IMG/VR virus record: IMGVR_UViG_3300047508_000198
Location: 1 to 64,000 of that record
Source of the DNA: a virus
Length of the DNA: 64,000 bases
Reading direction: 5' to 3' (one strand)
Shown: positions 1,129 to 61,054 of the stretch, one piece after another
Position numbering within the stretch: the stretch's first letter is position 1
Layout: each line of letters starts with the position of its first letter
Program-made: the position numbers and the translations under genes
Notes under the pieces: model-generated
The model's database searches: none
What the model saw: only the letters and a program-made list of their open reading frames with translations
What the model was told of the DNA's origin: nothing

Positions 1129-1306
1129 AGTGATCGAACTCCCCGTTGCGGGCGCCATCCAGGAAGCAGTCCCACTCGTTGCGAGTGAAGCGCAGCTCCT
1201 GCTCCGGGTGCTTGCTGTCCCGCATCGCGACGCCGCCGCCCTCCAGATGCGCGACCTCGACGCAATCGCCGTCGTCCCCGCTGAGGCTGCTCTTGATCCA
1301 CTCCAT
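1118..1306 (-). CDS. DUF397 domain regulatory-type protein
   Basis: About 62 aa matching the whole DUF397 pattern: EWIKSSLSG, GDCVEVA, GGGVAMRDSK, LRFTRNEWDCF, GEFD. In actinomycetes DUF397 proteins usually accompany an XRE-type regulator and act as small antagonists, so a phage copy suggests interference with a host developmental or conflict circuit. The start ATG at 1306 is embedded in the promoter element at 1305-1322, implying a leaderless mRNA. An upstream in-frame ATG at 1336 is the alternative. Confidence 0.85.
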   Translation of the reverse strand: MEWIKSSLSGDDGDCVEVAHLEGGGVAMRDSKHPEQELRFTRNEWDCFLDGARNGEFDHFAG

Positions 1307-1322
1307 ATCAAGGAATATAGCC
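1305..1322 (-). promoter_or_regulatory. Leaderless promoter element of the DUF397 gene
   Basis: Read on the minus strand: hexamer TATATT, then CCTTGAT, then ATG. The same hexamer-7 nt-ATG geometry recurs at 1724, 48094 and 57198, so transcription probably starts at or next to the A of the start codon. It stands out as an AT-rich patch in very GC-rich DNA. Confidence 0.6.
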
Positions 1323-1556: not shown

Positions 1557-1725
1557 GGCCGGCCCGGACGATCAGCCGGACCTGCTGCCTGGCCTCGACC
1601 AGGCTAGCCGCGTCGCCCTCGTGCGGGACATCGCCGAAGGTGAACCGGTACTGCCGCTGGTCGTGGCTGTAGCTGAAGAAGAACCGGCGGCCCCCGACCC
1701 GGACGTCGTACCGGCGGCTGGCCAT
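1513..1725 (-). CDS. Hypothetical protein, 70 aa
   Basis: Small mixed-charge protein beginning MASRRYDVRVGG, with an aromatic stretch (RRFFFSYS). No family recognised. It is the first gene of the regulatory operon running to position 3. Its ATG at 1725 sits exactly where the adjacent promoter element predicts a leaderless start. Confidence 0.6.
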   Translation of the reverse strand: MASRRYDVRVGGRRFFFSYSHDQRQYRFTFGDVPHEGDAASLVEARQQVRLIVRAGLDQGEQHPEEHDPS

Positions 1726-1742
1726 ATCAAGGAAGATAGCAC
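1724..1742 (-). promoter_or_regulatory. Leaderless promoter element
   Basis: On the minus strand: GTGCTATCTTCCTTGATATGG, with hexamer TATCTT, 7-nt spacer and ATG. Nearly identical to 3543-3562 and related to 1305-1322 and 7016-7033. Confidence 0.6.
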
Positions 1743-3485: not shown

Positions 3486-3542
3486 GCGATAGTGCCCCTC
3501 CTTGTGCAGGTGTGCGTGACTCCGTGCGGTCGCGAGTCACCT

Positions 3543-3562
3543 ATATCAAGGAAGATAGCACG
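3543..3562 (-). promoter_or_regulatory. Promoter of the secreted-protein gene
   Basis: Minus strand CGTGCTATCTTCCTTGATAT, identical in its core to 1724-1742. Here no ATG follows directly. About 55 nt of leader with an AAGGAGG site precede the start at 3485. Confidence 0.55.
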
Positions 3563-10900: not shown

Positions 10901-13900
10901 CGGGTCGCCCGGGTGATGCAGCCGGTCCTCGATGATGTCCAGCGCCGCGGTGCGCCCGTGACCCAGCCACCGGCCGCAGGCCACGTGGTGGCAGCCGGAC
11001 TGGCTGTACAGGTTGTCGGCGTCGGCCGCCTCCTGGCTCCAGCCGGCCGCCGCGGTGACCTCGATCCAGGGCGCGGTGCCGACGTGGACGCGGGCGCCCT
11101 GGCGGCGCTGCTTCCAGCGCTGGATCCGCTCGTTGCCGCCGTTGGTCCAGTGCTGGCTCTCCACGTGCTGGCGCATCCCCTGCGGGTCGTCGTGCCAGGC
11201 CTTCAGGTGCTTGCCCAGCTCGATGTCATCGAAGTGCTCCGGCACCCGGTCCTGGTCATCGCCGATGTGGATGGAGTCGTGCGAGAGGTCGCCGGTCGCC
11301 CGGTGGTAGACATCCATCCGCGGGCCGCCGTAGTGCTTGACGTACCAGCCCGAGCCCTTGCCGTTCGCCAGCGCGTGCTCGCGCTCGTAGTAGGGCGCGC
11401 CGCCCTCCTCGTCGGAGTCGAACTTGATGTGGCCCCGGCCGCCCGCGTACCGGCCCATCAGCTCCGAGCCCCGCCGGGTGTTCTCCTCGGACTGGCGGCT
11501 CTCCTCGGTGCCGCCCGGGTCCAGGACCTCCGCGCCGCCGCTCCAGATCTTGTCGGCCAGGGACCGGCCGAGGTCCTTGGACTGCTGGCGCCGGTCGATG
11601 TAGTCACGGGACCGCTCGGCCCGCAGCTGGGTCTCGTGCCCGCGCCAGCTCGGCCCCGGGGCGTGCCGCCCGGCGTTGTCGACGACATGGAAGTGGCCGG
11701 TCTCCGGGTGCTTGACCACCTCGTACGGGCCGTGCCACTCGTCCTCCGGGCTGTAGCCCTCCGGCTTGTGCACCCGGGCGTCCGGCCGGGCGACCCGCTC
11801 GGTGTCCTGCGGGTCGATGCGCGAGTGCGGGAAGGCAGGCGTGCGCTCCCTCGCCAGGTCAGTGAACCGCGGTTCCTCTTCGGTCCCGATCCGGTGCGCG
11901 TCCGGGCCCGCAGACTCCAGGTGATGCCACAGCTTGTAAGCCTGGTCCTCCCCGTAGGACCCGTCGTGCTCGGGGTTGCCGAAGTGGCCGTGCATCGGGT
12001 TGGCATCACGGCCGCTGGCGTCAACCACGTGGACCTGGCGGGTCTGCGGGTGCCGGATGACGTGGTAGGGCCCGTGGTAGCTCAGGCCGCGGTACCAGCT
12101 GTGCGGCTCCCGGGTCATCATGTTGTGCTCCAGCTCGGGCCCCACCGGGCTGCGGCCCGGCTGCGGCTCGGCCCAGACCTGGTGGCCCTCGGGGGCCTCG
12201 GCCCCGGTGATGGCCTGGCGGCGGACGCCGTGGCGCTCGCGCCAGCGCTCCTCCTCCGCGTCGTCTTCGTCCTTCAGGAACTGGTAGTGCGGGTGGTCCG
12301 GCCAGTGCTCGGTGTTGCCGCATTCCTCGGCGTGGCAGTACAGCGGGCGCACGTGCTCGCCCACCTGCATCGGGTGCGCCGAGCGCCAGGAGTTCTTCTC
12401 GGTGTCGGCGTACTCCAGGTCGGGCTCGACCGGGCCTGAGGGATGAACCCGGTAGACCCGCGACGGGTAGGCCTGATCCTCGTTCTCGCCAGGCCCCTGC
12501 CGCTGCTCGCGGCCCAGGTCGTGCGCCCGCCGGCTGGCCCCCGAGGAGTCCGCGCGCTCGCCCCAGCGGTGCGCCTCGGCCGGGTCGGTGGTGGCGTGCA
12601 CGTACGGGGCGGCGTGGATGTCGAAGTTGTTCGGGTCCTCCGCGGCCTGCTCGTGCGTCAGCATCTCGCCGGGGCGCAGGACCGAGCGGGTGCCATGGTA
12701 GAGCGGCTGACCCGTGCCGAAGTGGTGCTTACCGGAGTAGTCGGTGTCGGAGAAGCTGCGCCGCCGCGGGGCGCGCGGCGCCCGCGGGGCGAACGGGTTG
12801 CGGTGGCTGCACTGCTCGGAGATATGCGGCAGCTCCTTGCGGTCCTCGCCGAAGTAGCCCCACTCCATCAGCGAGTTGCCGGCGCTGCGGACGTGCTTGG
12901 CCGGGACCACCGTGCTCCAGATGTGCGCCCGGTCAGGGTGGTTGGGGCCCTTCCAGTTCCGCTCGCTGGTGTTGTTGACCGACCGGGCTTCCTGCTCGGC
13001 GTAGGACCGGTTCAGCGTCACCCAGTCACCGTGGTTGATCTCGCCCTTCTTGGCGTTGCGGCTCTCCGGGTTCTGCGCCGGGGCGGCCCGGTAGATGCGG
13101 ACCTTCTTCTCCGGGTTGCCGCGGGCCCGGCGGATGTCGTTCAGGTGCTTGTAGCCATGCTCCCCGCCGGAGTCGTCGTACTCGTGGATCCGCTCGTAGA
13201 TGTCCTTGGGCCAGTCCCCGCTGCCCATGTCGTGCAGCGGGTCGCCCTCCTCCATCGGCTGCATCTCCATCTGGTAGTCAGCCGGGTTGCCCGCCTCGTG
13301 CACGGACGCGAAGTGCTCCAGCAGGCCGAGCGGCGTAAAGGCGGGTTCACGCCGGGCCGCGGTCACCTGGTGCAGGTAGGGCTTGTCGAGCACGTGCGCC
13401 GTCGGGTCGGCCGGGTCCTCCACCAGGAAGCTGTTCTCGAAGAACGTCAGCCCGGCGCAGATCTCGTGGATGAGGCTCTCACGGACCTTGCCGTCGGCGC
13501 CGCGCTTGCGGAACTTCATGCCCTTCTTGCCGGGCATGTGCTGGCAGTACTCGGCCGGGCTGGTGGCCTTGTTGCCGCACGCCGAGCAGGTCGAGTACTC
13601 GCAGTCCACGCCCATCGAGGTGCGGTTGACCCGGCCCTCCAGGATGGCCTTCGCGAGCTTGGGGAAGCGCTGGGCGTCGATCTCGTGCAGCAGCTCGACC
13701 CAGGTGTCCGGGCTGCCGTCCGGGTTGCGGTCGTGGTGCATCGCCGCGGCGACGATGACGCCCCGGGCCCGGCGGTGGTTGGCGTTGTGGTGGTTGATGA
13801 AGGCCGGCTTGCCGAGGAAGGTCTTGTAGCCCTTCTCGATCTCCTCGGCCGGGAACGTGTCCCAGTTGTCGTTCGTCCGGCTGCTGATCGCCCTAGCCCG

Positions 13901-21626: not shown

Positions 21627-21938
21627 CTAGGTGCTCGCGTCACCTCTTCCGGGGCCAAGCCAGGCCGCCCACCGGGCGCGCAGGTCCTCCGCGATGGCCG
21701 GGGAGGCGGCCGAGGTCCGGGTGTCGGCCCAGGCGGTGCCGGAGCTGAACAGCACGACGTGCCCCAGCCCGGTGACGGCCTGGACATCGGAGATCGAGAC
21801 CTCGCGGTCAGCCGGGAAATCCAGCCGGACACCGCGGCCCTCGAACGGGTCGGCGGCGGCGATCTCCTCCGGCGTCAGGGCCCGGCCGGACAGGCCCCAG
21901 GCGGCAGCCGGGATCGCGGAGACGGGGACCTCAGGCAT
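21627..21938 (-). CDS. Hypothetical protein, 103 aa
   Basis: Starts at ATG 21938, overlapping the stop of the giant gene upstream by 8 nt. Contains LTPEEIAAADPFEGRGVRLDFPADREVSISDVQAVTGLGHVVLFSSGTAWAD, a compact alpha/beta pattern. In the structural operon; role unknown. Confidence 0.6.
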   Translation of the reverse strand: MPEVPVSAIPAAAWGLSGRALTPEEIAAADPFEGRGVRLDFPADREVSISDVQAVTGLGHVVLFSSGTAWADTRTSAASPAIAEDLRARWAAWLGPGRGDAST

Positions 21939-24900
21939 ACAGCACGTCGTCCTCGTGGTCATCCAGGCGGGGATCGTCGGTGTAGTGCGTGCCCTTCAGG
22001 TCGAGCAGGTCCAGGTTCCGGGCCCGGGTGCCGCGACCCTCGCGGATCAGCTCGTCGGCTTCCTCTTGCGGCAGCACGTCAGCGGTCTTGGCCAGGAAGT
22101 CACGAGCTGCCGCGGCGATGTCGCTGTTGCCGAGCTGGACGGCGCCGTCGCCCGCGTACTGCCGGGCCGCGGCCGAGTGCTGGAACTGCTGCACGATATC
22201 GGCGTTGGGCCCCTCTACCGGGTTCTCCTGGCCGGCGTTGGCGAAGGTCGTGTCGCCAAGGTCGTCCCCGGCGCCGCTCCACTGCTGCTGGCCCATGGTC
22301 TGGATGGAGGGGTCGTCCGGGCTGTAGGGATCGTCCATGCTGCCGGGCCCGGGATTCTGGGTCACCTGGCTGGGATGCTGGGCCCGGCCGGTATCGGTAG
22401 TACTACTGGTGTCGGTGTAGTCCGGTAGAGTCCGCGCCAGGTTGTAGGCCTTCGCGTCCTCATAGGTCGCCTGGTGCGGCTTACCCCACGCGGTCAGGCC
22501 ATCTTCTTCCAGCGCACCCTCGGGCTCGTCCTTCAGCTCGGCCAGGGCGCCGTCCAGCTGGGGCTCGGCGATCAGGGCCTGCTTGTGGACCGGATCACCA
22601 TGGTCCAGGCCGCACTCGTCGCAGCCGCGGTGGCCGTTGTCCTGGAAGGCATGCGCCGCAGCCTCAGCCGAGCGGCTCATCGAGGCGGTGAACGCGAGCC
22701 GGGCCGCGGCCAGGGCCTCCTCCATCCGGAGCCCCTGCGGATCGCGCGGCGTGATCGCTGTTGATGATCCTGCCGTGGCCGCGCGATCCGCGTAGCCGAA
22801 TGACTCCTGCCCTTCGGGGACGGTGGCCGGCCCGGTGCTGGTATTCATCGACGCGATATCCATGACCGGGCCAGCCGCTTGCCGCGCCGTGCCGTTCCTG
22901 CCAGAGGTGCTCGCGACGGGAGCAACCGGGGCCAGCACCCCTGTATCAATAATGCTAGCAGACCTCGGGTCCTCGTACGCAAACGTCTGGCCCTCCTCGG
23001 CCCAGTCGTCGACCGAGGGGTGGTCCGGGATCAGCGGATCGCTGTGCTTCACCGCATCGGACGTCAGCGGCATCTGGATCGCGGAGTTGTCCTGGATCTC
23101 GCCCCAGTTGTCCGGGTCCGGGCCCGCCAGCGGGCCGTAGGAGCCCGGGTCCCGGTCCTTCTCCGGCGGGCTGGTCGCGCCGTAGGGCTTGGGCGGCGGG
23201 TCGTCGATGACGTTCTGGGAGCCCCACGGGGCGTTCGCCTGGTCGGCGGTCAGGACCATGCCCGCGCACGACATCAGGACGGCGATCGCCGCCGGGTCCT
23301 CTCCCGCATCGAAAAGAACCCGGGCGGCAACCACAGCCGGCGGCCCGTACTGCGCCGCACCTACTGAACTCAGGATAGGACGCCGGGTCATCGGGGCCTC
23401 GTACTGCGTGGCCCACTGCTTGTCAGACGGGTGCCAGGGCGGCCAGGACTTGGTGACGACCTCCTCGGGCCAGCCGGCCACCTCGGGGAACATCGTCTTG
23501 CGCACCGCGCCGCGCTGGCGGGCCTCCAGGCTCAGCGCATAGGCGTGCGAGCACATCCGCCCGGCGAACCGGGACGGGTAGTCAGGGTCCTGGTGGAAGC
23601 TCGCCCACGGGCAGCCGCAGCTGTAGGCCATCACCGAGAACCCGCGGCCCGGGTAGTACTGGAGCCCGGTCTCGTATGTGGCGTGATCGCCTTTGACCTC
23701 GCCGACCGTCAGGCTACCGGCCAGCGCAGTGATCCGTACGCCGTTCTCGCGGACGATCCGCTCGGCCTTGGCCACGACGTCGCGCCAGGCGGCGGTGAAC
23801 TCGAACCGGAACGGAGCGCTGCCCGCGGCCTTCTCGAAGGCGTCCAGGGCGTCCTTATCCGGCCCGGCGTCCTTGCCGGGCTTGGCGGGCTTGACCGTAG
23901 TCACCGGCTGGATCGGGGCGAGGTTCTTGGTCCGCGGGCCGGGCGTGCCGCTCTGCGACAGCGGCGGCAGGCCGGTGACGACGGGCGGGTTCATGCCGGG
24001 CTCGGCGCCGGGATCCCCGGCCGAGGAATGGCCCGGCTCGAACGGGGCAGGATCCTCCTCGGCTGCCCCCGAGGGCTCCTGGCCAGGGTCCTCCAGGGGC
24101 GGCACCAGCTCGTCCTCGGTGCCCTCGATCGGCGGTTCCGGCTCCTCGCCTTCCTCGTGCTGGCTGGAGTGCATCGTGTCCCAGGGGCCCTCGACGTCAT
24201 CGACGTGCGCGGTCCAGGCGTGCAGGCCCTCGCGGCTGTCATCGTCCTCGGCCAGCTGCTCCTCGGCCAGCGCCCGGTGATGGCCGTCGGCGATCATCTT
24301 GGTGTCCTTGCCGGGCCGGTCGACCAGGATGGCAGCCTTGGGGTCCTTGCCCTTCTTCTCCTTCTTCAGGATCTTCTTGCGGGCCTTCTTGACCTTCTTC
24401 GGGTCGCTGCTGGCCGCCCAGCTGTCCCGGTTGGTGAAGTCGATCTGGTCGAGCGGAACGCGCCCGGGGCCCTCCCACTTCGCGTCGTGCACCCAGGACG
24501 TGGCCTCCGGCGGGAACTTCTTGCTCAGCAGCTTGTAGACCTCATCGGCTACCGGGTCGTGCACATCATGCAGGGCCAGCCTCGCCGTCATCTCGGTGAA
24601 GGCGCGCGGCCCGACCGCCTCGGCGAACTCGGTCTCCGGGTCGGGCTCCGGCACGTACTCCGGGAGCTTGTTGGTAAACGACTGGCTGTTCACGAAGTCG
24701 CCCTCGGTCGCGGTCGGGGCCGCCTGCCAGCTGTGCAGGTGCTCGCGCTGCTCGGGCGTCCAGGGCACCCGGGCATGTTTCACGGGAATCATTCCGGCCG
24801 TGTGCCGAATCGGCTTGCCGAAGTCGTGGTGCTCGAAGGGCTCGTTCGGGTACTCCGGCTCGTGCGGCTTCCAGCTGATCCCCTGCAGCCGCAGCGGTGA

Positions 24901-28980: not shown

Positions 28981-31140
28981 CTCGTCCGGCAGCTCGTCGC
29001 CCTCCTTGACGCCGAGCTTGCCGCGGACGCCCACCGTCCTCGGCGCCTTGTACTGAGGCGGGGCATCATGCGTCTCCCACTCGCGCACCTCCTGCAGCTG
29101 GCCGTCAGACCGGTAGACCGGGGTCTGGTGCTCCTCGTCCCCGTGCACCGGGTACGACCGCGCCTTCGCTGCCTCGCGGGTGCGGGCGGTGCGGCGGAAC
29201 AAGCTGGCCTCAGACGGCATGCCCTCGCGCTCCTCGTCGGACTCCTCCGGCCGGTCGGACTCCTCGCCGGGGCCGGGCTCCTCCTCGCCGCCCTCCTCCT
29301 CGCCCTCGGGCGGGGCCATCGGGTCCTCGCCCTCCATCTCGGCGTCCTCGGGCCCGGGGGCCAGCGCCAGCAGCGGCGGGCCGGGCTCGGTGCCCAGGCG
29401 GGGGATGGGCAGGCCGCCCATGGAAGCGCCTGCGGGCATGCCCTCGACCTGGGCGTAGGCACCGAAGTCGTCCTGCAGGTCCTGGGGGATCGGGTAGCCG
29501 CCGTCCTTCAGCGCGATGTAGGCCCGCTTGCGGGTGTCCTGCTCGGCGACGATCTGGTCCACCGCCTCGTCCTGGGACCGGGCGACCTCCTCGTCCAGGT
29601 CGATCTCCAGGTTCCGGGTCCGGGTGCGCTGGGAGATCGGGATGCCGGCGGCGCGCAGCGCCTCGATGAACTGGCGGGTCGCGTCCTCGTCCTTCAGGTT
29701 CAGCACCTGGAACTTGCGGTCGGGGACCAGCAGCTTGGGCTGCTCGACGAGATGCTTCTCGCCGGTCTCCTCGTCGGTCTCCAGCACCTCCTCCATGATC
29801 ACGTAGCGCTTGCCACCGTGCTCGCGGTAGGCGTAGTGCTCCTGGGCCTCGGCCACCACCAGGGCCCGCTGCCGGAAGTGCCGCGCCTGGAACTTCTGGT
29901 ACTTGGTCATCAGCATGGTGACCAGTTCCTTGTTCAGCGCGTCGGCCGCGTAGGTCTGGCCGGACTGGGCACCCATCAGGAACGTCCGGGACAGGCCGAA
30001 CACCTGCAGGATCGAGTCCTCGATCCGCTCGAAGTCGGGGGTCAGGTCGGGCATCTGCTCGCGGCCCAGCACCGGCAGCATCTCGACGGCGAAGTTGTAG
30101 ATCAGCGCGCGGAAGTCGCCGGCCAGGGCCGCGTCCAGGGCCAGCTCGAAGTTCTCCAGGTCGTCATCGGTGGGGATCCACGGCTGGGAGGTGCCCAGGT
30201 CGGTCGCCGAGGCGCCGAGCTTGCACAGGATCAGCGGCGTGTAGAGCCGGTCGGCGATCGAGTCCAGCGCGGTGTTGAGCATCTCCTTCTGCAGCATCGA
30301 GCGCATCGCCCGGGTCAGCAGCGGCACGCCGCGCACGTTGAACGTGTCGCCCCTGAACTTCAGCTGCTTCAGCAAGATGTTGCTCACCGGCATGAAGGTG
30401 TTCTCGGCCGTGTAGGCGGTCAGCTCGGGGTACTCCTGGACCAGCCGGTTGTACTCCCAGGCGGGCTGGCGGGTCTGCAGGATCTGCCGGATCGTCCAGG
30501 GCAGCCGGATGAAGAACCGCGGCTCCTTCAGGAACGGGCTGCGCTCGACCTTGACGTCATCGGGGTTGAGCAGCTCCTCGTCGTCCCAGATGCCGAGGTC
30601 CTCGTTGAACGTGGCGAAGCACCAGGCCTCGCCCGAGGTCCAGTACTCCCGGCCGATGTCGACGGTGAACTCCTCGTAGTCCAGGTGCTCCTCGCCGAAG
30701 AACAGGTCGCCGTAGAAGTCCTCCAGCCGGGAGTCCATGCACTCCAGGTGGTCGCCCATGGTCGGGAACTTGGAGAAGATGTCGACACACGAGCCGATGA
30801 TCGGGTCGGTCTGGTACAGCAGCCGGCAGAACGCCCGGACCTTGGCCAGCTCCTCGTTCTGGCTGAAGTCGTAGGGCAGGTTGTTCTGCCGCCAGTAGAA
30901 CAGCGGGTCGCGCGGGCGGCCGGTAGCGAACTGGATATCGCCGAACCCGCCGCCCGCTCCGCCCGCGCCCCCGGCACCGTACGCGGCAGTGCGCCGGTTG
31001 ACCGAGCGGTTCTTGCGGGCCTCGGCCACCTCGGCCGTCATGGACCCGTCCGCGGCCCCGTAGGCCAGCATCCGGCTCATCCCCTCGGAGACCCGGCGGT
31101 CGCGGTCGAGGGCGGCGGTGGCGCTGAACCTGACCTTCAC
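28969..31140 (-). CDS. Portal protein
   Basis: 723 aa. Residues 60-560 match the overall layout of large-phage portal proteins: RDPLFYWRQNNLPYDF, YQTDPIIGSCVDIFSKFP, YWTSGEAWCFATFNED, NPDDVKVERSPFL, then FGLSRTFLMGAQSGQTYAADALNKELVTMLM. The C-terminal 180 residues are acidic and Pro/Gly-rich. It forms the dodecameric DNA gate of the head. GTG start overlaps the stop of the zinc-ribbon gene upstream (GTGA). The large-terminase gene is outside the window. Confidence 0.8.
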   Translation of the reverse strand: MKVRFSATAALDRDRRVSEGMSRMLAYGAADGSMTAEVAEARKNRSVNRRTAAYGAGGAGGAGGGFGDIQFATGRPRDPLFYWRQNNLPYDFSQNEELAKVRAFCRLLYQTDPIIGSCVDIFSKFPTMGDHLECMDSRLEDFYGDLFFGEEHLDYEEFTVDIGREYWTSGEAWCFATFNEDLGIWDDEELLNPDDVKVERSPFLKEPRFFIRLPWTIRQILQTRQPAWEYNRLVQEYPELTAYTAENTFMPVSNILLKQLKFRGDTFNVRGVPLLTRAMRSMLQKEMLNTALDSIADRLYTPLILCKLGASATDLGTSQPWIPTDDDLENFELALDAALAGDFRALIYNFAVEMLPVLGREQMPDLTPDFERIEDSILQVFGLSRTFLMGAQSGQTYAADALNKELVTMLMTKYQKFQARHFRQRALVVAEAQEHYAYREHGGKRYVIMEEVLETDEETGEKHLVEQPKLLVPDRKFQVLNLKDEDATRQFIEALRAAGIPISQRTRTRNLEIDLDEEVARSQDEAVDQIVAEQDTRKRAYIALKDGGYPIPQDLQDDFGAYAQVEGMPAGASMGGLPIPRLGTEPGPPLLALAPGPEDAEMEGEDPMAPPEGEEEGGEEEPGPGEESDRPEESDEEREGMPSEASLFRRTARTREAAKARSYPVHGDEEHQTPVYRSDGQLQEVREWETHDAPPQYKAPRTVGVRGKLGVKEGDELPDEDVL

Positions 31141-31953: not shown

Positions 31954-31974
31954 GATACCAAGGTTCATTGATAT
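31954..31974 (+). promoter_or_regulatory. TATCAA/TTGATA-type promoter
   Basis: GATACCAAGGTTCATTGATAT, a degenerate copy of the dyad, 10 nt before the ATG at 31985, so the mRNA is nearly leaderless. Confidence 0.55.
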
Positions 31975-32247: not shown

Positions 32248-32265
32248 TATCAAGGTTTATTGATA
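32248..32265 (+). promoter_or_regulatory. Perfect TATCAA-N6-TTGATA promoter/operator
   Basis: TATCAAGGTTTATTGATA, with upstream CCGATTTTGCGT matching the flank of other copies. The gene starts at 32302 with a CAGGAGCACC ribosome site. Confidence 0.7.
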
Positions 32266-34212: not shown

Positions 34213-34700
34213 TGAACGACACCGCGGCACTGGTGTACATGATCTTGTGGCTGGCCGCCGTCGTCACGCTGGGCTTCGGCTGCCTCCTGCTGATGGTCAG
34301 CCTGGTCCTGTTCGATAAGCCCGCCGGGCAGCTGAGCACCCGGGAGGTCCTCGTGCCGCTGTGGTGCCTGCTGGCCGGGCCCCGGCAGCAGGACCGGCTG
34401 CGGGCCATCCTGGCGCGGCGGGCCGCGGGGCAGGCGCTGGCCAGCGGCACCCTCCGCGACGTCGCCCGGCACCGGGTCAGCGCGCCGCCGCGGCGTGACC
34501 GGGCTGAGACGTGCCGGGACTGCGGCGCCACCCGGGTCCGCTTCATCCCGCCGTACCACCCGGGGATGGGCCCCGGCTTCTGGGGATTCATGCCGATGGA
34601 GGTCGTCACCGAACGAGACGCCGACTGTCGCTGCCCCCGGCACGCGCACCGCTTCCCCGATTTGCCGTTATCAATAAACCTTGATATCCTGGGGTCATGA
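34212..34700 (+). CDS. Membrane-anchored cysteine-containing protein
   Basis: 162 aa. One strong transmembrane helix (residues 6-31, LVYMILWLAAVVTLGFGCLLLMVSLVLF), a basic middle, then a CRDCGATR...CRCPRHAH zinc-like cluster. Its last codons (LSINLDILGS) are read from the next gene's promoter dyad, so promoter and coding DNA overlap. Confidence 0.6.
   Translation: MNDTAALVYMILWLAAVVTLGFGCLLLMVSLVLFDKPAGQLSTREVLVPLWCLLAGPRQQDRLRAILARRAAGQALASGTLRDVARHRVSAPPRRDRAETCRDCGATRVRFIPPYHPGMGPGFWGFMPMEVVTERDADCRCPRHAHRFPDLPLSINLDILGS
34669..34686 (+). promoter_or_regulatory. Perfect dyad promoter/operator, inverted core
   Basis: TATCAATAAACCTTGATA: same arms as the other copies but the 6-bp core is reversed, so the dyad works in either orientation. 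CCTGGGGTC then ATG (34697) follow, as at 51713. Confidence 0.7.
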
Positions 34701-36504: not shown

Positions 36505-36522
36505 TATCAAGGTTTATTGATA
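36505..36522 (+). promoter_or_regulatory. Perfect dyad promoter/operator
   Basis: TATCAAGGTTTATTGATA with flanks CCCCGATTTGGCAT and TCCTGGGG conserved with 34669, 39254 and 51713. Reads into the 36557 operon. Confidence 0.7.
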
Positions 36523-38969: not shown

Positions 38970-40041
38970 GCCGGACCTGAGCGCCATCCGGGAGGCGCTG
39001 GCCATGGCCGGCTACCACAACGGCCGGGTCCAGTCCTCCGCCATGCAGGCCACGATCTTGCTGAGCGCCTACGAGGGGACGATCGCCGACGACGAGGTGC
39101 CGCTGTGCCCGCCCGGCGACCCGGCCTGGTTCCAGCAGGCCGTCACCGTCCTTGAACAGGCTGACCAGGAATGCGCCCGGCTCAAGGTGCAGCTCCTCAC
39201 CGCCCAGCTCCGGATCCTCCAGCTGATGCTCGCGGGCAAGCCCGATTTGGAGTTATCAAGGTTTATTGATATTCTGGTGCCAGACACCGAGACACACCAG
39301 GAGACACCGATGACCACAGGACCCGCCCCCAAGCTGCTCGACCGGGTACGCAAGCTGCTCGCCAAGGCCGAGGCCGAGGGCGTCACCCCGCCGGAGGCCG
39401 AGGCCCTGACCGCCAAGGCGGCCGAGCTGATGGCCCGCTACGGCATCGACCGGGCCCGCCTCGGCGCACACTCGCAGCAGGACCGGCCCGGCAACCGGAT
39501 CATCGACATCGACAACCCGTGGGCCCAGGTCCGCGCCCACCTGCTGGCCGGCCTGGCCGGGGCGATGAACTGCCAGTGCGTGCTGCTGAGCACGAGCAAG
39601 CCCGGCGCCCGGATCCACGTCTTCGGCTACGCCTCCGACCTGGAGCGCGCCGACATCATGTACACCTCGCTGCTGCTCCAGATGGCCAGCGCGCTGCGCA
39701 AGACGGCCGTCCCGATTGGCGTCCGCAGCGTCCGGGCCTGGCGCCGGAGCTTCCTGCTCGGCTTCGTCACCGCGGTCATCCTCCGGGTCAAGTCAGCCGA
39801 GGAACGCGCCCGCGGCGTGGCCAAGACCGAGGACTACGGCAAGGACGGGCCGAGCACCGCGCTGGTGCTGGCCGACCGCGCCGTGGTCATCCGCACCCAG
39901 CTGCAGCAGGCCTACCCGACCACCCGGCGAACCCGGATCACCTACTCCGGCCGCGGCTACAGCTCCGGCTACGCCCAGGGCCAGCGGGCCGACATCGGCC
40001 AGTCCGGGCTGAAGTCCACGCGGGCCCTGGGCCGGGGCTGA
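38959..40041 (+). CDS. Extended ORF fusing a helical module to the DUF2786 gene
   Basis: No stop separates the region beginning at 38959 (MPAEPDLSAIREALAMAGYHNG, then a helical SAYEG...LLTAQLRILQLML segment) from the DUF2786 gene at 39310. A 360-aa fusion is therefore possible. The dyad promoter inside the frame (39254-39271) is translated as LSRFIDIL. Two in-frame products are likely. Confidence 0.45.
   Translation: MPAEPDLSAIREALAMAGYHNGRVQSSAMQATILLSAYEGTIADDEVPLCPPGDPAWFQQAVTVLEQADQECARLKVQLLTAQLRILQLMLAGKPDLELSRFIDILVPDTETHQETPMTTGPAPKLLDRVRKLLAKAEAEGVTPPEAEALTAKAAELMARYGIDRARLGAHSQQDRPGNRIIDIDNPWAQVRAHLLAGLAGAMNCQCVLLSTSKPGARIHVFGYASDLERADIMYTSLLLQMASALRKTAVPIGVRSVRAWRRSFLLGFVTAVILRVKSAEERARGVAKTEDYGKDGPSTALVLADRAVVIRTQLQQAYPTTRRTRITYSGRGYSSGYAQGQRADIGQSGLKSTRALGRG
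39254..39271 (+). promoter_or_regulatory. Perfect dyad promoter/operator inside an open frame
   Basis: TATCAAGGTTTATTGATA preceded by CCCGATTTGGAGT, as at 36505. It lies 38 nt before ATG 39310, which has a CAGGAGACACC ribosome site. Confidence 0.7.
39310..40041 (+). CDS. DUF2786 family protein
   Basis: 243 aa. LLDRVRKLLAKAEAEGVTPPEAEALTAKAAELMARYGIDRARL is the classic DUF2786 N-terminus. The rest (DIDNPWAQVRAHLLAGLAGAMNCQCVLL, GYASDLERADIMYTSLLLQM) fits the extended family, which is common in actinophages. The molecular function is not known. Promoter and ribosome site support this start over the longer fusion. Confidence 0.8.
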   Translation: MTTGPAPKLLDRVRKLLAKAEAEGVTPPEAEALTAKAAELMARYGIDRARLGAHSQQDRPGNRIIDIDNPWAQVRAHLLAGLAGAMNCQCVLLSTSKPGARIHVFGYASDLERADIMYTSLLLQMASALRKTAVPIGVRSVRAWRRSFLLGFVTAVILRVKSAEERARGVAKTEDYGKDGPSTALVLADRAVVIRTQLQQAYPTTRRTRITYSGRGYSSGYAQGQRADIGQSGLKSTRALGRG

Positions 40042-51712: not shown

Positions 51713-51730
51713 TATCAAGGTTTATTGATA
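51713..51730 (+). promoter_or_regulatory. Perfect dyad promoter/operator
   Basis: TATCAAGGTTTATTGATA, then TTCTGGGGTC and ATG 51741, closely matching 34669. Upstream flank AATCGGTTTGGAAA. Confidence 0.7.
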
Positions 51731-51740
51731 TTCTGGGGTC

Positions 51741-52190
51741 ATGATGACCAAGGTAGAGAAGATCCGCAAGGCAGCCCCCGGCCTCCCCGAGGCCGACGTC
51801 ACCCGGTACGCCCGGATGACCGTGGCCGAAGTGGACAGCCTCTGCCGCATCCTGCGCCGGACCCGGCGCGACGCGCTGCAGGCCGAGGCCGCCAAGCGCC
51901 GTCAGCGTAGGCTCGACAACCGGAGGCACGGCAACTATGACGAGTTCCAGCTGACGGAGCGCAACTTGCGGGTGGTCGGCAAGCAGGGCGAGCGGGCCGG
52001 CGACGGCAACCTGGATGCGCTGGCCGCGCTCGGCGCGACCGCCCGGTTCGTTGATGAGCAGATCGCCCAGGCGGTGGCCAAGTGCCGCGCCCGGGGCTAC
52101 ACCGACCCGGAGATCGCCGAGATGCTGGGCGTCACCCGGCAGGCCCTGGGCCAGCGCTACGGCCGCAAGAAGAACATCGGCCTGGCGTAA
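51741..52190 (+). CDS. Helix-turn-helix protein, 149 aa
   Basis: Residues 110-145 (CRARGYTDPEIAEMLGVTRQALGQRYGRKKN) form an HTH. The N-terminal part is helical and basic (RRTRRDALQAEAAKRRQRRLDNRR). Near-leaderless start after a dyad operator, so autoregulation is plausible. An isolated plus-strand gene; a candidate repressor of the dyad regulon. Confidence 0.65.
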   Translation: MMTKVEKIRKAAPGLPEADVTRYARMTVAEVDSLCRILRRTRRDALQAEAAKRRQRRLDNRRHGNYDEFQLTERNLRVVGKQGERAGDGNLDALAALGATARFVDEQIAQAVAKCRARGYTDPEIAEMLGVTRQALGQRYGRKKNIGLA

Positions 52191-55443: not shown

Positions 55444-55752
55444 TCAGAACTGGTCGGGCGAGGTGATCGCGTCGGTGATCACGACGGTCGGCGGCACGGA
55501 CATGTCGCCGCCCACCGAGGCGATGAACGTCTGCAGCTCGGGCCGGCTGAAGAACGACTGGAAGCCGTCCTCGTCCGTCCACTCGTCCACGACCATGATC
55601 ATGCCGTCGCCGACGCCGAACCGGTGATGCAGCGCGCCGGCCATCCGGGCGTCTGCGGCGAATCGCTCGTAGTCATCGGCCCGGTCGGTCAGGGACTTCT
55701 GGAATACCTCGGTGTCGCCCTCGATCGCGACGGTGATGAGCTTGCTACCCAT
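55444..55752 (-). CDS. ABM-like dimeric alpha/beta-barrel protein
   Basis: 102 aa. KLITVAIEGDTEVFQKSLTDRADDYERFAADARMAGALHHRFGVGDGMIMVVDEWTDEDGFQSFFSRPELQTFIASVGG has the full antibiotic-monooxygenase-like pattern (strand, helix, H..F......EW.......F). In hosts such proteins act as small-molecule monooxygenases or heme-binding proteins. Its phage role is unknown. It has its own promoter at 55779 and AAGGAAGAGG site. Confidence 0.7.
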   Translation of the reverse strand: MGSKLITVAIEGDTEVFQKSLTDRADDYERFAADARMAGALHHRFGVGDGMIMVVDEWTDEDGFQSFFSRPELQTFIASVGGDMSVPPTVVITDAITSPDQF

Positions 55753-55778: not shown

Positions 55779-55797
55779 TATCAAGGAACCATAGCAG
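55779..55797 (-). promoter_or_regulatory. Promoter overlapping the stop of the giant gene
   Basis: Minus strand GCTATGGTTCCTTGATAC shares CCTTGATA with the others. The TGA of the 55781 gene lies inside it. Drives the ABM-like gene and operon below. Confidence 0.5.
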
Positions 55798-58700
55798 GCT
55801 TCGCCTCGCGCTCGATGCCAAGTTCGCTGTAATCGGCCGCGCCGCGGCCGGAGTGCTTGATCGTGACGTGGTGGCCGAGCGGGTGGTATTCCCAGCTGGG
55901 GCTGGTGCGCTCCGGCTTCTGCGGGACCAGGTAGCCGGGGTTGCCGCTGTGGTCGACGTACGCGCCCTCCAGCTTGACGTGAGCACCCGGCCGGAAACGC
56001 ACCTCGGCCTCCCAGTCCATGGACCGGTGGATGCCCCGCCACATCGGGTGCGACCGCGGGAACGCCTGCTTCTCGTGGTCCTCGACGACGCCCTGCCAGA
56101 CGACCCGGCGCTTGCCGGGCTCGCCGGTCGGGTGGGTGATCAGCGCATCAGGGTTGGCCGTCCAGTGCATGCCGACCGACCCGGCATCCTTCGGGTGCTC
56201 GGTCTCATCGCGCATCTCGCCGCGCCAGACCCGGGTGCCGGGCGGCGGGTTCTTCGCCAGGTCGAACATCTCGCGGCGGTGCACGCCCAGGTCCTCGGTG
56301 TCGAAGGCGCGCTGCTGCTCCGGGGGCAGGCTGCCCGGGGTGATGACCGCGGTCCTGGCCGTGCGGAAGTCCTTCACCAGCACCGGGACCGGCTTGTCGT
56401 ACCCGGCCTCGTTCAGCGCGAAGGTCCGGTGATGGCCGTTCCACAGCCAGGACTGGTCATCATCGTGGACCAGGGTGATCGGATGGCTGGGCGGGTAGCT
56501 ATGCGTGTCGCCGCTCATCCCGCCGTGCAGGGACGGCTTGTAGCCCTGCTGGCGGATCTTCTCAGCCAGGTCGCTGATGTGCCGGCGCCCGGCGGGGTCC
56601 TGCATGCGCCAGGCCTCCCGCTGCGCGTACGGCAGCAGGTCGCGCGGGTGGATGCGCTCTACGCGCTGGGTGTAGAGGGCCGCCGCGGTCTTGTCCACCC
56701 GCGAGCGGCGCACCGTGTCCCAGGTCTTGGCGAAGCCCGGGTGCAGCGCGCCGGTCTCCTTCAGGCCGTCCACCTCGTGCTTGTCGAACCAGGCGTGGCC
56801 CTCGGCCTCGAAGCTGGTGCTGCCGCCGCCCTTCGGCTCGAACCGCTTGCCGAGGTCGGCCACGTGGGTGTCCGCGAACCAGCCGCCGTGATCGTCGCGC
56901 ACGGTGTGATGGTGCTTCATCCGGGGCAGCGGGCCCATCTCCTCGGCCGCCTCGCGCCGGGCCGCAGCGTAGGAGTCTTCCCCCTCGTGCTGCAGCGCGC
57001 CGCCGGGCAGCGCCCAGGTGCCGCCGTGGTCGGTGAAGCCGGAGGAGGTCCGCTTCTGCAGCAGGTACCGGTGGTGGCCGTCGGGGGCCCGGTGCCGCAG
57101 CAGCAGGAATGAGGCCCCGTGCGGGCCCCAGTGCTCATGGCCCTGGTCGCATTCGACGTAGCCGGTGTCAGGAGTAAAATCGTCACCGGCATTGGCCATA
57201 TCAATAATCATAGCCTTCTTCGGATACCCCTTGCCGGGCACCTCTTCCAAAACCCTGACCGGGGCTTTCGTGCGGAATGCTCCCGGGCCGCCATCTTCAG
57301 AGTCATCCTCCACCGGCCCGCTGGGCCGGACCCGGTACACGCGCGGCGTGTCGTCGGAGTATTCGTCATCCGGACTAGGGGCCGCATGAGCATAACCCGC
57401 GGCACGCTCCTGGCTCGTGGTGAGGTACACATGCTCCATGACAGAGCCGCTGACTCCCCCGCGGTGGCCGGGAGTCAGGTCCTGGCCGGGATGGAAGAAT
57501 TTCCTCGTCCCGTGAAAAAACTCCTGCGGCCCGGCCGAGGCCTGGCGCGGATACCCCTTGCCGGTACCCGGCTGGTTCCACCAGGGGTTCGGGTCCTCCG
57601 GCGAGGCACCGCGCTCGTGGAGGCTGACAACCCGCAGCGGGTGCTCAGACCGGTGGCCCATGCCGTCCGGGTCCGGCTCGACCGGGCCGGTCGGCTCCAC
57701 CTGGTAGATGCTGTACGTCTTGGCCTTGTTGCGGACGGCGGCCAGCCCGCCGAACGTCCGCGCCACTGAGTCAGTAGCCGATAGATATACATGCTTCTTG
57801 CTCGACACGTCATGGCCCTTGTGGCCGGGCTCGATCAGGGCGCCGGGGCTGAGCCGGGCGGCGGTGCCGTGGTAGTAAGGCCCGTCGTAGGCCGGGGCCG
57901 CGGCGGTCTTGCCCGGGTGGTGCATGTAGTCCTCGGGCAGGAACTCCGACGGCGCGATGTCGGCCGGGATGTGGTTGCCGTGCCGCTCCTTCACCTCGGG
58001 GCCCTTAGATGCGCCGGGCAGCTTGTACTTGCGCCGGTTCGGGATCCAGCTGTGCCGGTGGCCGATCACCGGCACCGCCTCGTGCCCGGCCTCAGCTGCC
58101 CAGGCCAGGCGGCTGTTGCCCTCGGGCACGTAGGCGTAGTTGGACTTCGGGTCCCAGTTGACGTGGATCGGCTGGCGGATGCCCTCGTCTCTCACGGACT
58201 GGACATTGGCCGCCCACTCCTCGGGCGTGTGCCGCGGCGCCATCACCTCGCCCTCGGGGCTGCGCGAGGTACCGGGCCCGTGGTGCCACTCGCGGTGCTT
58301 CATCAGCTTGTCGGTGCGCACCCACTCCACCCGGGCCTGCTCGAACCGCTTGCTCACCTCGGACAGGTCCCCGCCGGGCAGGATGGCCTGCTTGCGCACG
58401 CCGGGGTAGGCGCCGCCGTGCTCGGCGTGGAAGCGGCCCACCCGGTCGTACATCGGCTTATCCTCGTTCAGCTCCGAGGAGTAGCCACGCTTACCGTGCT
58501 GCCAATTCTCGTCCTCGCCCCAGAACCGGGGCTCGACCGGGTGATGCTCGACCTCGTGCGGCTCGGGCGCGGTCTTCGGCGGGGCGATGTGCTCGACGTG
58601 GGTGGTCTCGATCTGGCTGGGCCGGGTGGCGATCGCCGAGATGTGCCGGACGTCCTGCCTGGTGTGCTCGGCGAACTCCTTGTCCCACTCGCCGTCGTAG

Positions 58701-61054
58701 CTGCCCTGGCCGGGCCCCTCGACCTCGTTGCCGTAGGTGATGCCGTGATGGCCCTTGCGGATCAGGTCATCGGTGAAGTCGTGCAGGATCCGGGGCAGCT
58801 TCGGATGCCACTGCAGCACCTGCTGGGCGTGCCCGGCCACCCGGTGGAAGTACCGGGCGTGCGACGGGTCCTCCTCGCCCCAGTTGCGCTCGGCCAGCTC
58901 GTCATCGGACAGGCCGTGCGGGTTGGGGTGGCCGCCGGGCAGGTGCTCCTCGTGCCAGTTGCGGCGGGTGCCCTTGCTGTCGGAGTACTGCCACTGCATG
59001 CTGGCGTTGAGCTTGTCGTCGTGCCAGTCCGGGTGGTGCTTGTCGGCCCACTGGGCGATCGCCAGGTTGAGATGGTCCTCGGTCGGGAAGTGCGCCGGGT
59101 TCCGCATGTGCAGCCGGGCATGCACCAGGGCCGAACCGACGCCGGGGCTGCCGCCGCCGATCTTCGACGGGTAGATGCCCTTGGCGAACCCGTGCGCCAC
59201 CCGGTGCAGCGGGCTGAAGTGCGTGCCGAGCAGCTTGTTCGGCTGCGGCCAGCCGCGGCCGGACTCGCCGCCGCGCTGGTCCTCCAGCGGGCGGCCGGCC
59301 CGCAGGTCCTCCGGCTGGCCCTTGGTGCCGTGGAACCAGGCGTGGCTGAACTCCGGCCGGCCGCCGAACTGGCTAGTGCCGTGGTAGGGATTCGGGAAGG
59401 CCTCGGGCACGGCCGGATCGCCGACCGCGGCCAGGTGCCGGGAGGGGCGGCCGAAGTCGTGCCGGTGCCAGTGCTCCTGGCCGCCGTGCTTCCAGCTGAT
59501 GCCGGTCAGGTGCACCGGGGCCCCGTACTTCAGCGGCACCTCGTGCTCGCTGCGCTCGTGGTCGAAGCCGTACATGTGCCGGGCTTCGAGGTGGTCCGGA
59601 TCGGTCTCGATGTGGTCCTCGTCCGGGCTGGCGGCGTGCAGCACCACGTGGGTCACCGACGGCTTAGGACCCATCCCGACCGGGCCCTCATACGTATCGT
59701 CCGAGCCCCAGTGCCGGGCCGCGGTCTCGTTCGGGGTCCAGTGCACGCCGAGGTGGCCCTCATGGTCGGCGCCGTACTCCGCCTCCTCCTGGGTGCCGCC
59801 GTGGAAGCCCTCGCGGTGCAGGTAGCCGCGCAGGGCATGAGCGCGCTCGGCGGACGGCCGGGACTCGTCATGCACCGCGTCATGGACCTCGCGCGGCAGC
59901 TGCTTGACCAGGCCGCGGTGGATGCCGCCCGCAAATGGCAGGTGGTAATACCAGTCGGTGTAGGTGTCGCGGTGCTGCTCGGCCACCATCGGGTCATCGT
60001 GCTCGCCGTGCACCGGGCACTCGCGCATGGTCTGGCATTCCTCGTGCGCGCTGTTGTGCCCGGCAACATCCTCGTCGTCGAGCGGCTCACCGCAGTGGAA
60101 GCACGGCGGGTTGACGGCCGCGGCGAAGTGCTCCAGCAGGCTGACCTTGCGAACCACGCGCAGCGGGTGGCGCGAGCGGTAATCGCCCCCGCCGCCGCCC
60201 GGGTCGGGCTCGTGCGGCCCAGTCGGTTCCACCTCATAGACGGCTGGCGGCAACCGCGGGTCACCGCGGCTGCGGGCCCAGCGCGCGGCCTGGCCCGCCC
60301 CTGCGGAGAAAAACGTCCGGCCGATGGTGTCGTCCTGCTGGGTCGGCGTGATGCCGTGCTCGCGCAGGTACGGGGCGAGGGAAGACTCATGGCCGGGCTC
60401 GATCACAGCGCCCGGCTCCAGGTCCGCCCGGGTCCCGTGATACCAGGCGGCGAAGTGCTCCAGCAGCCCGGCGGTCTTCGGCTCGTCGAGACGCTCCAGG
60501 TGCTTCGCCGAGGGAACCACGGCGGAGATGGACCCCTCGTCCTCGCTGACGTTGCGGTAGAAGTAGCCGCTCTTGGCCCGGCCGCGCTTGATCTGGCCGG
60601 CCATCAGGCCGTTGGCCTTGAAGTCCTCGTGCGGGATGGCCGGGTGATTGGTCATGGGCCCGGTGATCCGCACCGGGAAGATGTGCGGCCGGGCATCGAG
60701 CGGGATCTTCGGGCTGTGGCCGGAGGCATCCGGTGAGTAGCTGGCCGTGCCGTTCGGGTAGGCCGGCTCGTGGTGCTCGACAACCCGCTTCCAGGTCCTA
60801 TCCGCGGGATTGAACTCGTGCCGGACCTGATCGCGGCTGATCAGCGTCTTGCCGTACTCCCGGGTACCGTCCCATTCGCCCTCGTGCGGCTTGCCGATCC
60901 GGGCCTCCAGCGCCTGCTTAGCCGCCTCGCGGGTCCCGACGTGGATGCCGTACCTCGCGCCGGTCTGCCAGGTCCGTACGTCCGGGGTGCCGTGGTAGAA
61001 GGTCCACCCGGGATCCGGCTGGTACGTCCCGAAGTGCGCCATCAGGTCAGGCAT
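55781..61054 (-). CDS. Giant polyvalent protein: multiple ARTs, two ParB-like, Nudix
   Basis: 1757 aa. ART-like units near residues 17-60 (FYHGTPDVRTW), 205-330 (WYHGTRADLEPGAVIEPGH), 390-540 (GGIHRGLVKQL, LGVHWTPN, VHLTGISWK), 565-860 (AWFHGTKGQ, LLGTHFSP, GHHGITYGNE), 1085-1180 (YYHGTAARLSPGALIEPGH), 1205-1280 (FFHGTRKFFHPGQDL) and 1600-1720 (RVWRGEM, VGMHWTANP, EAEVRF). ParB-like modules lie near 930-1040 (EGNSRLAWAAEAG) and 1460-1560 (NGHHRTFALNEAG). The Nudix box is at about 1351-1374 (GGALQHEGEDSYAAARREAAEEMG, shown as its key residues G, E, REAAEE, G). Probably virion-packaged, modifying host proteins and nucleotides after entry. ATG 61054 overlaps the gene upstream. Confidence 0.7.
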   Translation of the reverse strand: MPDLMAHFGTYQPDPGWTFYHGTPDVRTWQTGARYGIHVGTREAAKQALEARIGKPHEGEWDGTREYGKTLISRDQVRHEFNPADRTWKRVVEHHEPAYPNGTASYSPDASGHSPKIPLDARPHIFPVRITGPMTNHPAIPHEDFKANGLMAGQIKRGRAKSGYFYRNVSEDEGSISAVVPSAKHLERLDEPKTAGLLEHFAAWYHGTRADLEPGAVIEPGHESSLAPYLREHGITPTQQDDTIGRTFFSAGAGQAARWARSRGDPRLPPAVYEVEPTGPHEPDPGGGGGDYRSRHPLRVVRKVSLLEHFAAAVNPPCFHCGEPLDDEDVAGHNSAHEECQTMRECPVHGEHDDPMVAEQHRDTYTDWYYHLPFAGGIHRGLVKQLPREVHDAVHDESRPSAERAHALRGYLHREGFHGGTQEEAEYGADHEGHLGVHWTPNETAARHWGSDDTYEGPVGMGPKPSVTHVVLHAASPDEDHIETDPDHLEARHMYGFDHERSEHEVPLKYGAPVHLTGISWKHGGQEHWHRHDFGRPSRHLAAVGDPAVPEAFPNPYHGTSQFGGRPEFSHAWFHGTKGQPEDLRAGRPLEDQRGGESGRGWPQPNKLLGTHFSPLHRVAHGFAKGIYPSKIGGGSPGVGSALVHARLHMRNPAHFPTEDHLNLAIAQWADKHHPDWHDDKLNASMQWQYSDSKGTRRNWHEEHLPGGHPNPHGLSDDELAERNWGEEDPSHARYFHRVAGHAQQVLQWHPKLPRILHDFTDDLIRKGHHGITYGNEVEGPGQGSYDGEWDKEFAEHTRQDVRHISAIATRPSQIETTHVEHIAPPKTAPEPHEVEHHPVEPRFWGEDENWQHGKRGYSSELNEDKPMYDRVGRFHAEHGGAYPGVRKQAILPGGDLSEVSKRFEQARVEWVRTDKLMKHREWHHGPGTSRSPEGEVMAPRHTPEEWAANVQSVRDEGIRQPIHVNWDPKSNYAYVPEGNSRLAWAAEAGHEAVPVIGHRHSWIPNRRKYKLPGASKGPEVKERHGNHIPADIAPSEFLPEDYMHHPGKTAAAPAYDGPYYHGTAARLSPGALIEPGHKGHDVSSKKHVYLSATDSVARTFGGLAAVRNKAKTYSIYQVEPTGPVEPDPDGMGHRSEHPLRVVSLHERGASPEDPNPWWNQPGTGKGYPRQASAGPQEFFHGTRKFFHPGQDLTPGHRGGVSGSVMEHVYLTTSQERAAGYAHAAPSPDDEYSDDTPRVYRVRPSGPVEDDSEDGGPGAFRTKAPVRVLEEVPGKGYPKKAMIIDMANAGDDFTPDTGYVECDQGHEHWGPHGASFLLLRHRAPDGHHRYLLQKRTSSGFTDHGGTWALPGGALQHEGEDSYAAARREAAEEMGPLPRMKHHHTVRDDHGGWFADTHVADLGKRFEPKGGGSTSFEAEGHAWFDKHEVDGLKETGALHPGFAKTWDTVRRSRVDKTAAALYTQRVERIHPRDLLPYAQREAWRMQDPAGRRHISDLAEKIRQQGYKPSLHGGMSGDTHSYPPSHPITLVHDDDQSWLWNGHHRTFALNEAGYDKPVPVLVKDFRTARTAVITPGSLPPEQQRAFDTEDLGVHRREMFDLAKNPPPGTRVWRGEMRDETEHPKDAGSVGMHWTANPDALITHPTGEPGKRRVVWQGVVEDHEKQAFPRSHPMWRGIHRSMDWEAEVRFRPGAHVKLEGAYVDHSGNPGYLVPQKPERTSPSWEYHPLGHHVTIKHSGRGAADYSELGIEREAKPAMVP
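57198..57215 (-). promoter_or_regulatory. Internal leaderless promoter before the Nudix module
   Basis: Minus strand GGCTATGATTATTGATATGG: near-ideal hexamer TATGAT, 7-nt spacer TATTGAT, ATG at 57199. The downstream product (57199 to 55781, 472 aa) would be exactly Nudix + ParB-like + ART. Confidence 0.55.

What the first reader, a model, noticed from the sequence alone, without database searches (positions are those of the whole stretch)
55781..57215. Internal promoter and ATG exactly before the Nudix module of a giant ORF
Inside an uninterrupted 1757-codon frame there is TATGAT-TATTGAT-ATG, the same geometry as stand-alone promoters. The ATG opens a 472-aa product consisting of Nudix, ParB-like and ART modules. 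ART and Nudix in one product could make and then clear ADP-ribose or NAD-derived signals. This suggests one frame gives both an injected giant and a cytoplasmic short enzyme.
Basis: partly seen in the sequence, partly recalled or inferred. Interest (0 to 1): 0.72.

Follow-up and report, generated by a model that had tools for sequence, protein, structure and literature searches.

The report
Hidden start inside giant phage protein
A soil phage carries, inside the gene for one giant many-enzyme protein, a copy of the same control signal it uses before ordinary genes, placed exactly where an enzyme module begins, so one gene may give both a giant protein probably packed into the virus head and a separate shorter enzyme.

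Summary
GCTATGATTATTGATATGG at 57214-57196(-) lies inside an open 1757-codon ORF, exactly where the Nudix module begins. It belongs to a phage-wide, oriented DNA element, GCTAnnnTnnTTGATA. A matrix built without it ranks it 5th in 85 kb (27.6 bits; chance maximum 17.9). Two small genes start at the same ATG spacing. The only two ATT isoleucine codons of the ORF are here. A diverged relative (49% identical Nudix module) keeps the element and ATG at the same junction. So an internal leaderless promoter is plausible, but neither RNA nor protein was tested, and five more distant relatives carry the Nudix inside a giant ORF without it. The giant is a "polyvalent protein", a known class. Its rifampin-type ADP-ribosyltransferase domains lie upstream of the internal ATG; the short product would be Nudix, a ParB-like domain and a weakly supported ART-fold domain. 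The junction also carries a [KR]xA peptide. Its strong form, [KR]TA[AGS], is concentrated in the giants and, in isolate Tonenili, in head genes (15 against 1.1 expected; none in tail genes), which suggests a head-protease site. Proteolysis is therefore a second, compatible route to a free Nudix enzyme.

The parts
55781..61054 (-). Giant ORF g71, 1757 aa, polyvalent protein with Arr-ms ART modules, ParB-like domains, Nudix and a C-terminal ART-fold domain
57196..57214 (-). Internal element GCTATGATTATTGATATGG (TAnnnT hexamer 57207-57212, TTGATA 57199-57204)
55781..57199 (-). Predicted short in-frame product, 472 aa, starting MANAGDD
   Evidence: expression not tested
56762..57079 (-). Nudix domain (PF00293, E 2.2e-10); nearest solved structure RenU 6uuf, E 1.5e-9
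56354..56686 (-). ParB-like domain (WNGHHR motif; weak ParBc_2 match)
55784..56353 (-). C-terminal domain with predicted ART fold (invariant WRGE, GMHW, ExE)
57239..57520 (-). Arr-ms ART module just upstream of the internal ATG, absent from the short product; extra module relative to L004
57212..57220 (-). KKA peptide at the Nudix junction (GYPKKA|MIID); close relatives have RQA or RRA here
60467..60478 (-). Putative head-protease site KTAG
58382..58393 (-). Putative head-protease site KQAI
57899..57910 (-). Putative head-protease site KTAA before an ART module
57536..57547 (-). Putative head-protease site RQAS before an ART module
56681..56692 (-). Putative head-protease site KTAA between the Nudix and ParB-like domains
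56345..56356 (-). Putative head-protease site RTAV between the ParB-like and ART-fold domains
61028..61045 (-). LMAHFG at the giant's N-terminus, capsid-targeting-like peptide; internal copies LLEHFA at 60449-60466 and 60122-60139
55779..55795 (-). Element GCTATGGTTCCTTGATA overlapping the ORF's stop, upstream of gene 55444-55752; conserved in L004 and G001
1303..1321 (-). Stand-alone element with the same geometry, ATG 1306 (DUF397 gene)
1722..1740 (-). Stand-alone element with the same geometry, ATG 1725
3541..3559 (-). Stand-alone element upstream of the secreted-protein gene 2616-3485
22944..22959 (-). Second intragenic element, inside giant ORF 21931-26787, conserved at G001:505, no ATG at the spacing
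13400..13870 (-). Head maturation protease domain (phrog_18299) at the N-terminus of giant ORF 7904-14035
30982..30993 (-). RTAA at portal residue 50, where portal homology begins

Best explanation
[quoted passage not shown] At the border before its Nudix module lies a genuine copy of this phage group's own regulatory element. It most likely acts as an internal promoter: the TAnnnT hexamer directs a transcript that starts at or next to the ATG 7 nt downstream, and this leaderless mRNA is translated into a 472-aa Nudix / ParB-like / ART-fold protein. That protein lacks the giant's N-terminal targeting-like peptide, so it would stay in the infected cell. Shown here: the element, its membership of the family, its position, its ATG spacing, its biased codons and its conservation in one relative. 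Inferred: transcription, translation, retention in the cell and enzyme activity. The same junction carries a [KR]xA peptide, so proteolysis during head maturation may release a similar Nudix unit from the packaged giant.
For: Held-out matrix rank 5 of 85 kb, 27.6 bits against simulated maximum 17.9; L004's copy scores 29.6 with the next site in that contig at 7.1. Zero expected, 3 exact copies in the window. Of 14 related sites outside giant ORF interiors, 12 lie within 130 nt upstream of a same-strand gene start, where 4-11% of positions do. Identical geometry at the real start of the DUF397 gene. TAnnnT about 12 bp before the start marks leaderless genes in Actinobacteria (PMC3160421). Both ATT codons among the 45 Ile codons of the ORF are here; the lowest third-position GC in the ORF is here. 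Element and ATG are kept at the same junction in L004/L005, whose Nudix module is about 49% identical. The targeting-like peptide LMAHFG/LLEHFA occurs in this phage's giants, 4 against 0.06 expected, but not in the short product.
Against: No RNA or protein data. No sigma-70-type hexamer pair at the site. Element and ATG absent at the Nudix border of G001, G002, G006, G007 and G008. Intragenic elements at 22949 and G001:505 have no ATG at the spacing, so the element can sit in a giant without making a start. L004 is one lineage; L005 is nearly identical to it.
Confidence: 0.5

Rival explanations
1. The element is a binding site of a phage regulator (operator or stoperator-like) that happens to lie in the ORF; it modulates or blocks transcription through the late genes and starts nothing.
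For: TTGATA is shared with palindromic sites TATCAAGGTTTATTGATA that overlap likely promoters of plus-strand genes, including the HTH gene 51741-52190. All intragenic copies in giants are oriented with transcription, as cluster A stoperators are (PMC9283540, listed; orientation from general knowledge). Two intragenic copies lack an ATG.
Against: 12 of 14 copies outside giant interiors sit just upstream of gene starts; three copies in the window overlap an ATG at fixed spacing, plus L004; no repressor was identified or tested.
Confidence: 0.25
2. A relic: the Nudix-ParB-ART block was once a separate gene with its own promoter and was fused in frame to the giant; the element is no longer used.
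For: Modules are shuffled between relatives; the window has one extra ART module inserted exactly between GKGYPRQA and IIDMA relative to L004; the element's AT-rich codons look out of place.
Against: Element and ATG remain intact in two diverged lineages although the hexamer itself differs (TATGAT, TAAGAT), which a relic would not be expected to keep; no stand-alone version of the block was found in 7 relatives.
Confidence: 0.15
3. Only proteolysis frees the Nudix unit: the head protease cuts the packaged giant at [KR]xA sites, including KKA|M before the Nudix and KTA|A after it, and there is no internal product.
For: [KRH][TQ]A[AGSVI] is enriched in large proteins of six phages (26 against 6.0, 22 against 4.1, 14 against 2.4, 19 against 5.1, 26 against 7.5, 13 against 6.2) and sits near module edges (50 of 119 within 5 aa, 21.1 expected, sd 4.0). 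In Tonenili [KR]TA[AGS] occurs 15 times in the head block, 1.1 expected, and never in the tail block. At the Nudix border close relatives keep RQA or RRA rather than the ATG. A head protease domain is encoded.
Against: The window's own border peptide, KKA, is a weak form of the motif. It does not explain the DNA element, its codon bias or its ATG spacing. No cleavage was observed.
Confidence: 0.1

Closest known systems
Polyvalent proteins of phages (Iyer et al. 2017, PMC5512222)
   Same: Many disparate domains in one chain, ARTs the commonest protein-modifying domain, ParB-like domains, encoded beside virion genes; predicted to be injected
   Different: Here several Arr-ms ARTs and a Nudix are joined by recurring [KR](T/Q)A peptides, and a regulatory element with an in-frame ATG lies inside the ORF; no internal start was mentioned in the passages read
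NAD+/ADP-ribose network proteins in myovirus heads (PMC9503650)
   Same: ART and Nudix domains fused to head proteins or the head peptidase and thought to be packaged
   Different: Nudix in viruses is said to be typically stand-alone outside RNA-virus polyproteins; here it is one module of a 1757-aa chain
Leaderless TANNNT promoters of Actinobacteria (PMC3160421)
   Same: TAnnnT hexamer with its first T 13 nt before the ATG
   Different: Followed by a fixed TTGATA, and located inside an open ORF
Stoperators of cluster A mycobacteriophages (PMC9283540)
   Same: Many dispersed, oriented, asymmetric sites in one phage genome
   Different: Most copies here precede gene starts; no repressor or elongation block shown
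T4 Alt and internal proteins with capsid targeting sequence and gp21 cleavage (PMC9026906)
   Same: Injected ART, short N-terminal targeting peptide, short protease motif in head proteins
   Different: Motif here is [KR]TA, not L/I-x-E; one chain carries many modules and several sites; not shown experimentally

Membership tests
Polyvalent proteins | Several domains of disparate activity in one chain | tested here: met
   Arr-ms x3, Nudix, weak ParB_N by Pfam; ART fold by model
Polyvalent proteins | Encoded among virion morphogenesis genes | tested here: met
   Next to giant 61047-65843 and terminase large subunit 66221-68356; portal, head protein and protease in the same record
Polyvalent proteins | Packaged and injected | not testable with these tools
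   Needs virion proteomics
Leaderless actinobacterial promoter | TANNNT about 12 bp upstream of the start codon | tested here: met
   TATGAT with first T 13 nt before the ATG
Leaderless actinobacterial promoter | Transcript starting at the ATG | not testable with these tools
   Phage known only from a metagenome
Stoperators | Dispersed asymmetric sites oriented with transcription | tested here: met
   Class B sites on the minus strand within minus-strand genes; 47252 points the other way
Stoperators | Bound by an immunity repressor that stops elongation | not testable with these tools
   HTH genes present (51741-52190, 1308-1556) but binding unknown
Prohead protease cleavage site | Short motif confined to head proteins | tested here: met
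   Tonenili head block 15 against 1.1 expected, tail block 0, rest 2 against 1.7
Prohead protease cleavage site | Cleavage at the motif | not testable with these tools
   No mass spectra or N-terminal sequences for this phage group found in the papers searched
Nudix hydrolase | Nudix box Gx5Ex7REUXEEXGU | tested here: met
   REAAEEMG present; one extra residue in the first spacer in the window, exact in L006
ADP-ribosyltransferase (C-terminal domain of the short product) | ART fold with R, S/T and ExE | tested here: inconclusive
   The 25 best VIA-align rows are all ARTs, Z up to 5.8; no significant Foldseek or Pfam hit; pattern conserved in 5 sequences

The most novel reading that the evidence does not exclude
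One reading frame serves two deliveries. The full-length giant is targeted to the head by LLxHFA peptides, cut into separate enzymes at [KR]TA sites and injected; an internal leaderless promoter of the phage's own regulon makes an untargeted Nudix-ParB-ART isoform that works in the producing cell.
Probability: 0.27. Interest if true: 0.78.

Novelty: new variant of a known kind. Interest (0 to 1): 0.55.

Why it matters
Polyvalent proteins are thought to act as injected units. A real internal start would show that a phage can use the same modules twice, once carried in with the DNA and once made in the cell. The [KR]TA motif, found here both in metagenomic giants and in the head genes of the laboratory mycobacteriophage Tonenili, makes the open question of how multi-enzyme cargo is processed testable by mass spectrometry of an isolate that grows on Mycobacterium smegmatis.

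Tried and rejected
Chance explanation for the site: rejected. Conserved peptide explanation (xIID) for the element: not favoured, because the same DNA element is read in another frame as LSSLI at G001:938 and ATT codons are otherwise unused in the ORF. AlphaFold model of the whole 472-aa product: pLDDT 36, not used. Foldseek against solved structures for the C-terminal domain: no hit at E below 0.001; sequence profile against PDB: none. Isolated phages with a relative of the giant: none at E 1e-5. Prophage or host search with the portal in bacterial genomes: none, so the host is unknown. Contig 3300008255_000082 and four other contigs matching short element patterns are unrelated by base composition. 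More distant giants G006-G008 carry the Nudix but their genomes show little or no TTGATA enrichment.

Full report
WHAT IS THERE. The window is bases 1-64000 of an 84,944-bp IMG/VR virus record, 70% GC. Its portal matches Gordonia, Rhodococcus and Mycobacterium myoviruses (Skog, Finch, Tonenili) at 35-38% identity, and it encodes a major head protein, a terminase and a head maturation protease domain. ORF 55781-61054(-) is open for 1757 codons. Pfam finds three Arr-ms stretches (rifampin ADP-ribosyltransferase), a Nudix domain and a weak ParB_N. No isolated phage in the collection searched has a relative; seven loci in IMG/VR do.

THE SITE. On the minus strand the sequence reads AAG GCT ATG ATT ATT GAT ATG GCC, that is GC-TATGAT-TATTGAT-ATG at 57214-57197. 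A first look at the starts of called genes showed the same string before two small genes, GCTATATTCCTTGATATGG (ATG 1306) and GCTATCTTCCTTGATATGG (ATG 1725). The first is a DUF397 gene whose profile match begins at residue 2, so that ATG is very likely a true start. TTGATA is over-represented on both strands. Two forms occur: palindromes TATCAAGGTTTATTGATA upstream of plus-strand genes, with a plausible TTTGCA-17-TATnnT promoter around them and starts mostly 38-43 nt downstream in relatives, and the asymmetric form CTAnnnTnnTTGATA in minus-strand genes. Six exact TANNNTNNTTGATA sites occur, all on the minus strand, none expected. A matrix from twelve other sites in three phages, this site and L004's held out, ranks 57204 fifth in the record. 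Twelve of the fourteen asymmetric sites that do not lie in the interior of a giant ORF are within 130 nt upstream of a same-strand start. The element is therefore most simply a promoter element. My gene calls come from a simple codon-position scorer, not a standard gene finder.

CONSTRAINT ON DNA. In the 1757-codon ORF, 43 of 45 isoleucines are ATC; both ATT codons are at this site, and the 20-codon windows with the lowest third-position GC in the whole ORF cover it. L004, whose Nudix module is 49% identical, has GCT AAG ATC ATT GAT ATG GCC at the same junction: the hexamer changes from TATGAT to TAAGAT but the TAnnnT-7-ATG arrangement stays. A second intragenic site at 22949, in the giant 21931-26787, is conserved at G001:505 but has no ATG at that spacing. 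At the end of the giant, CTGCTATGGTTCCTTGATAC overlaps the stop codon in the window, L004 and G001 and precedes the next gene by about 30 nt.

RELATIVES WITHOUT IT. The Nudix module lies inside a giant ORF in every close relative found (1075-1988 aa open frames) and in G008. G001, G002, G006, G007 and G008 lack both element and ATG at the border. What the nearer ones share there is a peptide, RQA|SSGGDD in G001 and RRA|SSSGDR in G002; the window has KKA|MIID and L004 RQA|KIID.

A SECOND LAYER: LIKELY PROTEOLYSIS. [KR][TQ]A followed by a small residue recurs in the giants and the portal of this phage, 18 against 3.0 expected, and not in its other proteins. It recurs in the large proteins of five other metagenomic phages, one of them only weakly, and lies near the edges of shared segments, 50 of 119 within 5 residues against 21 expected. 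The strongest form is [KRH]TA[AG]. Isolate Tonenili gives a separate test: [KR]TA[AGS] occurs 15 times in the head block, 1.07 expected, maximum 5 in 300 shuffles, 0 times in the tail block and 2 elsewhere in the 105 kb examined. I drew the block limits after seeing some of these proteins, so the exact figure is not blind; the zero in the tail block was not foreseen. The portal site lies at residue 50, where homology to other portals begins, and is matched in G008. T4 and SPN3US process head proteins at short motifs and remove targeting or propeptide segments (PMC9026906, PMC5694885), so a head-protease site is the natural reading. A second repeated peptide, L[LM]xHF[AG], 4 against 0.055 expected, sits at the giant's N-terminus and after such sites, like a capsid targeting sequence. 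It is absent from the 472-aa product.

DOMAINS OF THE SHORT PRODUCT. Nudix is sound. The ParB-like domain is weak by profile but keeps a WNGHHR motif and is found in four related records. The C-terminal domain has no family match; with five sequences it folds at pLDDT 78, and the 25 best structural rows are all ARTs, though Z is at most 5.8 and Foldseek gives nothing significant. The nearest predicted viral structures include proteins of Gordonia phage Pupper and Mycobacterium phage Myrna and 'ParB-like nuclease' proteins of Bigswole and Stubby. The well-supported Arr-ms domain lies before the internal ATG, and no Arr-ms match is found in the short product.

VERDICT. I put an internal leaderless promoter that yields a short enzyme at about one half, a regulator site at one quarter, a fusion relic at 0.15 and proteolysis alone at 0.1. 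Proteolysis may also occur alongside the first. The host is unknown and nothing here was measured in cells.

Noticed in passing
31956-31973, 32248-32265, 34669-34686, 36505-36522, 39254-39271, 51713-51730: Palindromic sites TATCAA-N6-TTGATA before plus-strand genes (31968 with one change), with the core inverted at 34681 while the flanks keep their orientation; shared with G001 and G002.
   Followed up: partly
51741-52190: HTH gene with the palindromic site 11-16 nt before its start in the window and in G001, and likewise upstream in G002; candidate autoregulated controller of the element family.
   Followed up: partly
L079 and L082 (Mycobacterium phage Tonenili): [KR]TA[AGS] is concentrated in head-block proteins and absent from tail proteins, suggesting the specificity of the head protease of Bixzunavirus-like phages.
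   Followed up: partly
61028-61045, 60449-60466, 60122-60139, 13307-13324: Repeated peptide L[LM]xHF[AG] at giant N-termini and after protease-like sites, a candidate capsid targeting sequence.
   Followed up: partly
7904-14035: Head maturation protease domain fused at the N-terminus of a 2043-aa chain with a weak Arr-ms match, phrog_2579, phrog_3170, DUF7178 and an acidic scaffold-like region.
   Followed up: partly
57239-57547 compared with L004:4160-4240: One whole ART module is inserted exactly between the linker GKGYPRQA and IIDMA relative to L004, with the linker duplicated (GKGYPKKA).
   Followed up: partly
16266-20390: 1374-aa protein made of many imperfect repeats of the type VTPAVLATSASFPAVTV.
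   Followed up: no
1118-1556: A DUF397 gene and a LuxR/GerE-type HTH gene at the end of the phage record, with class B elements at 1311 and 1730.
   Followed up: no
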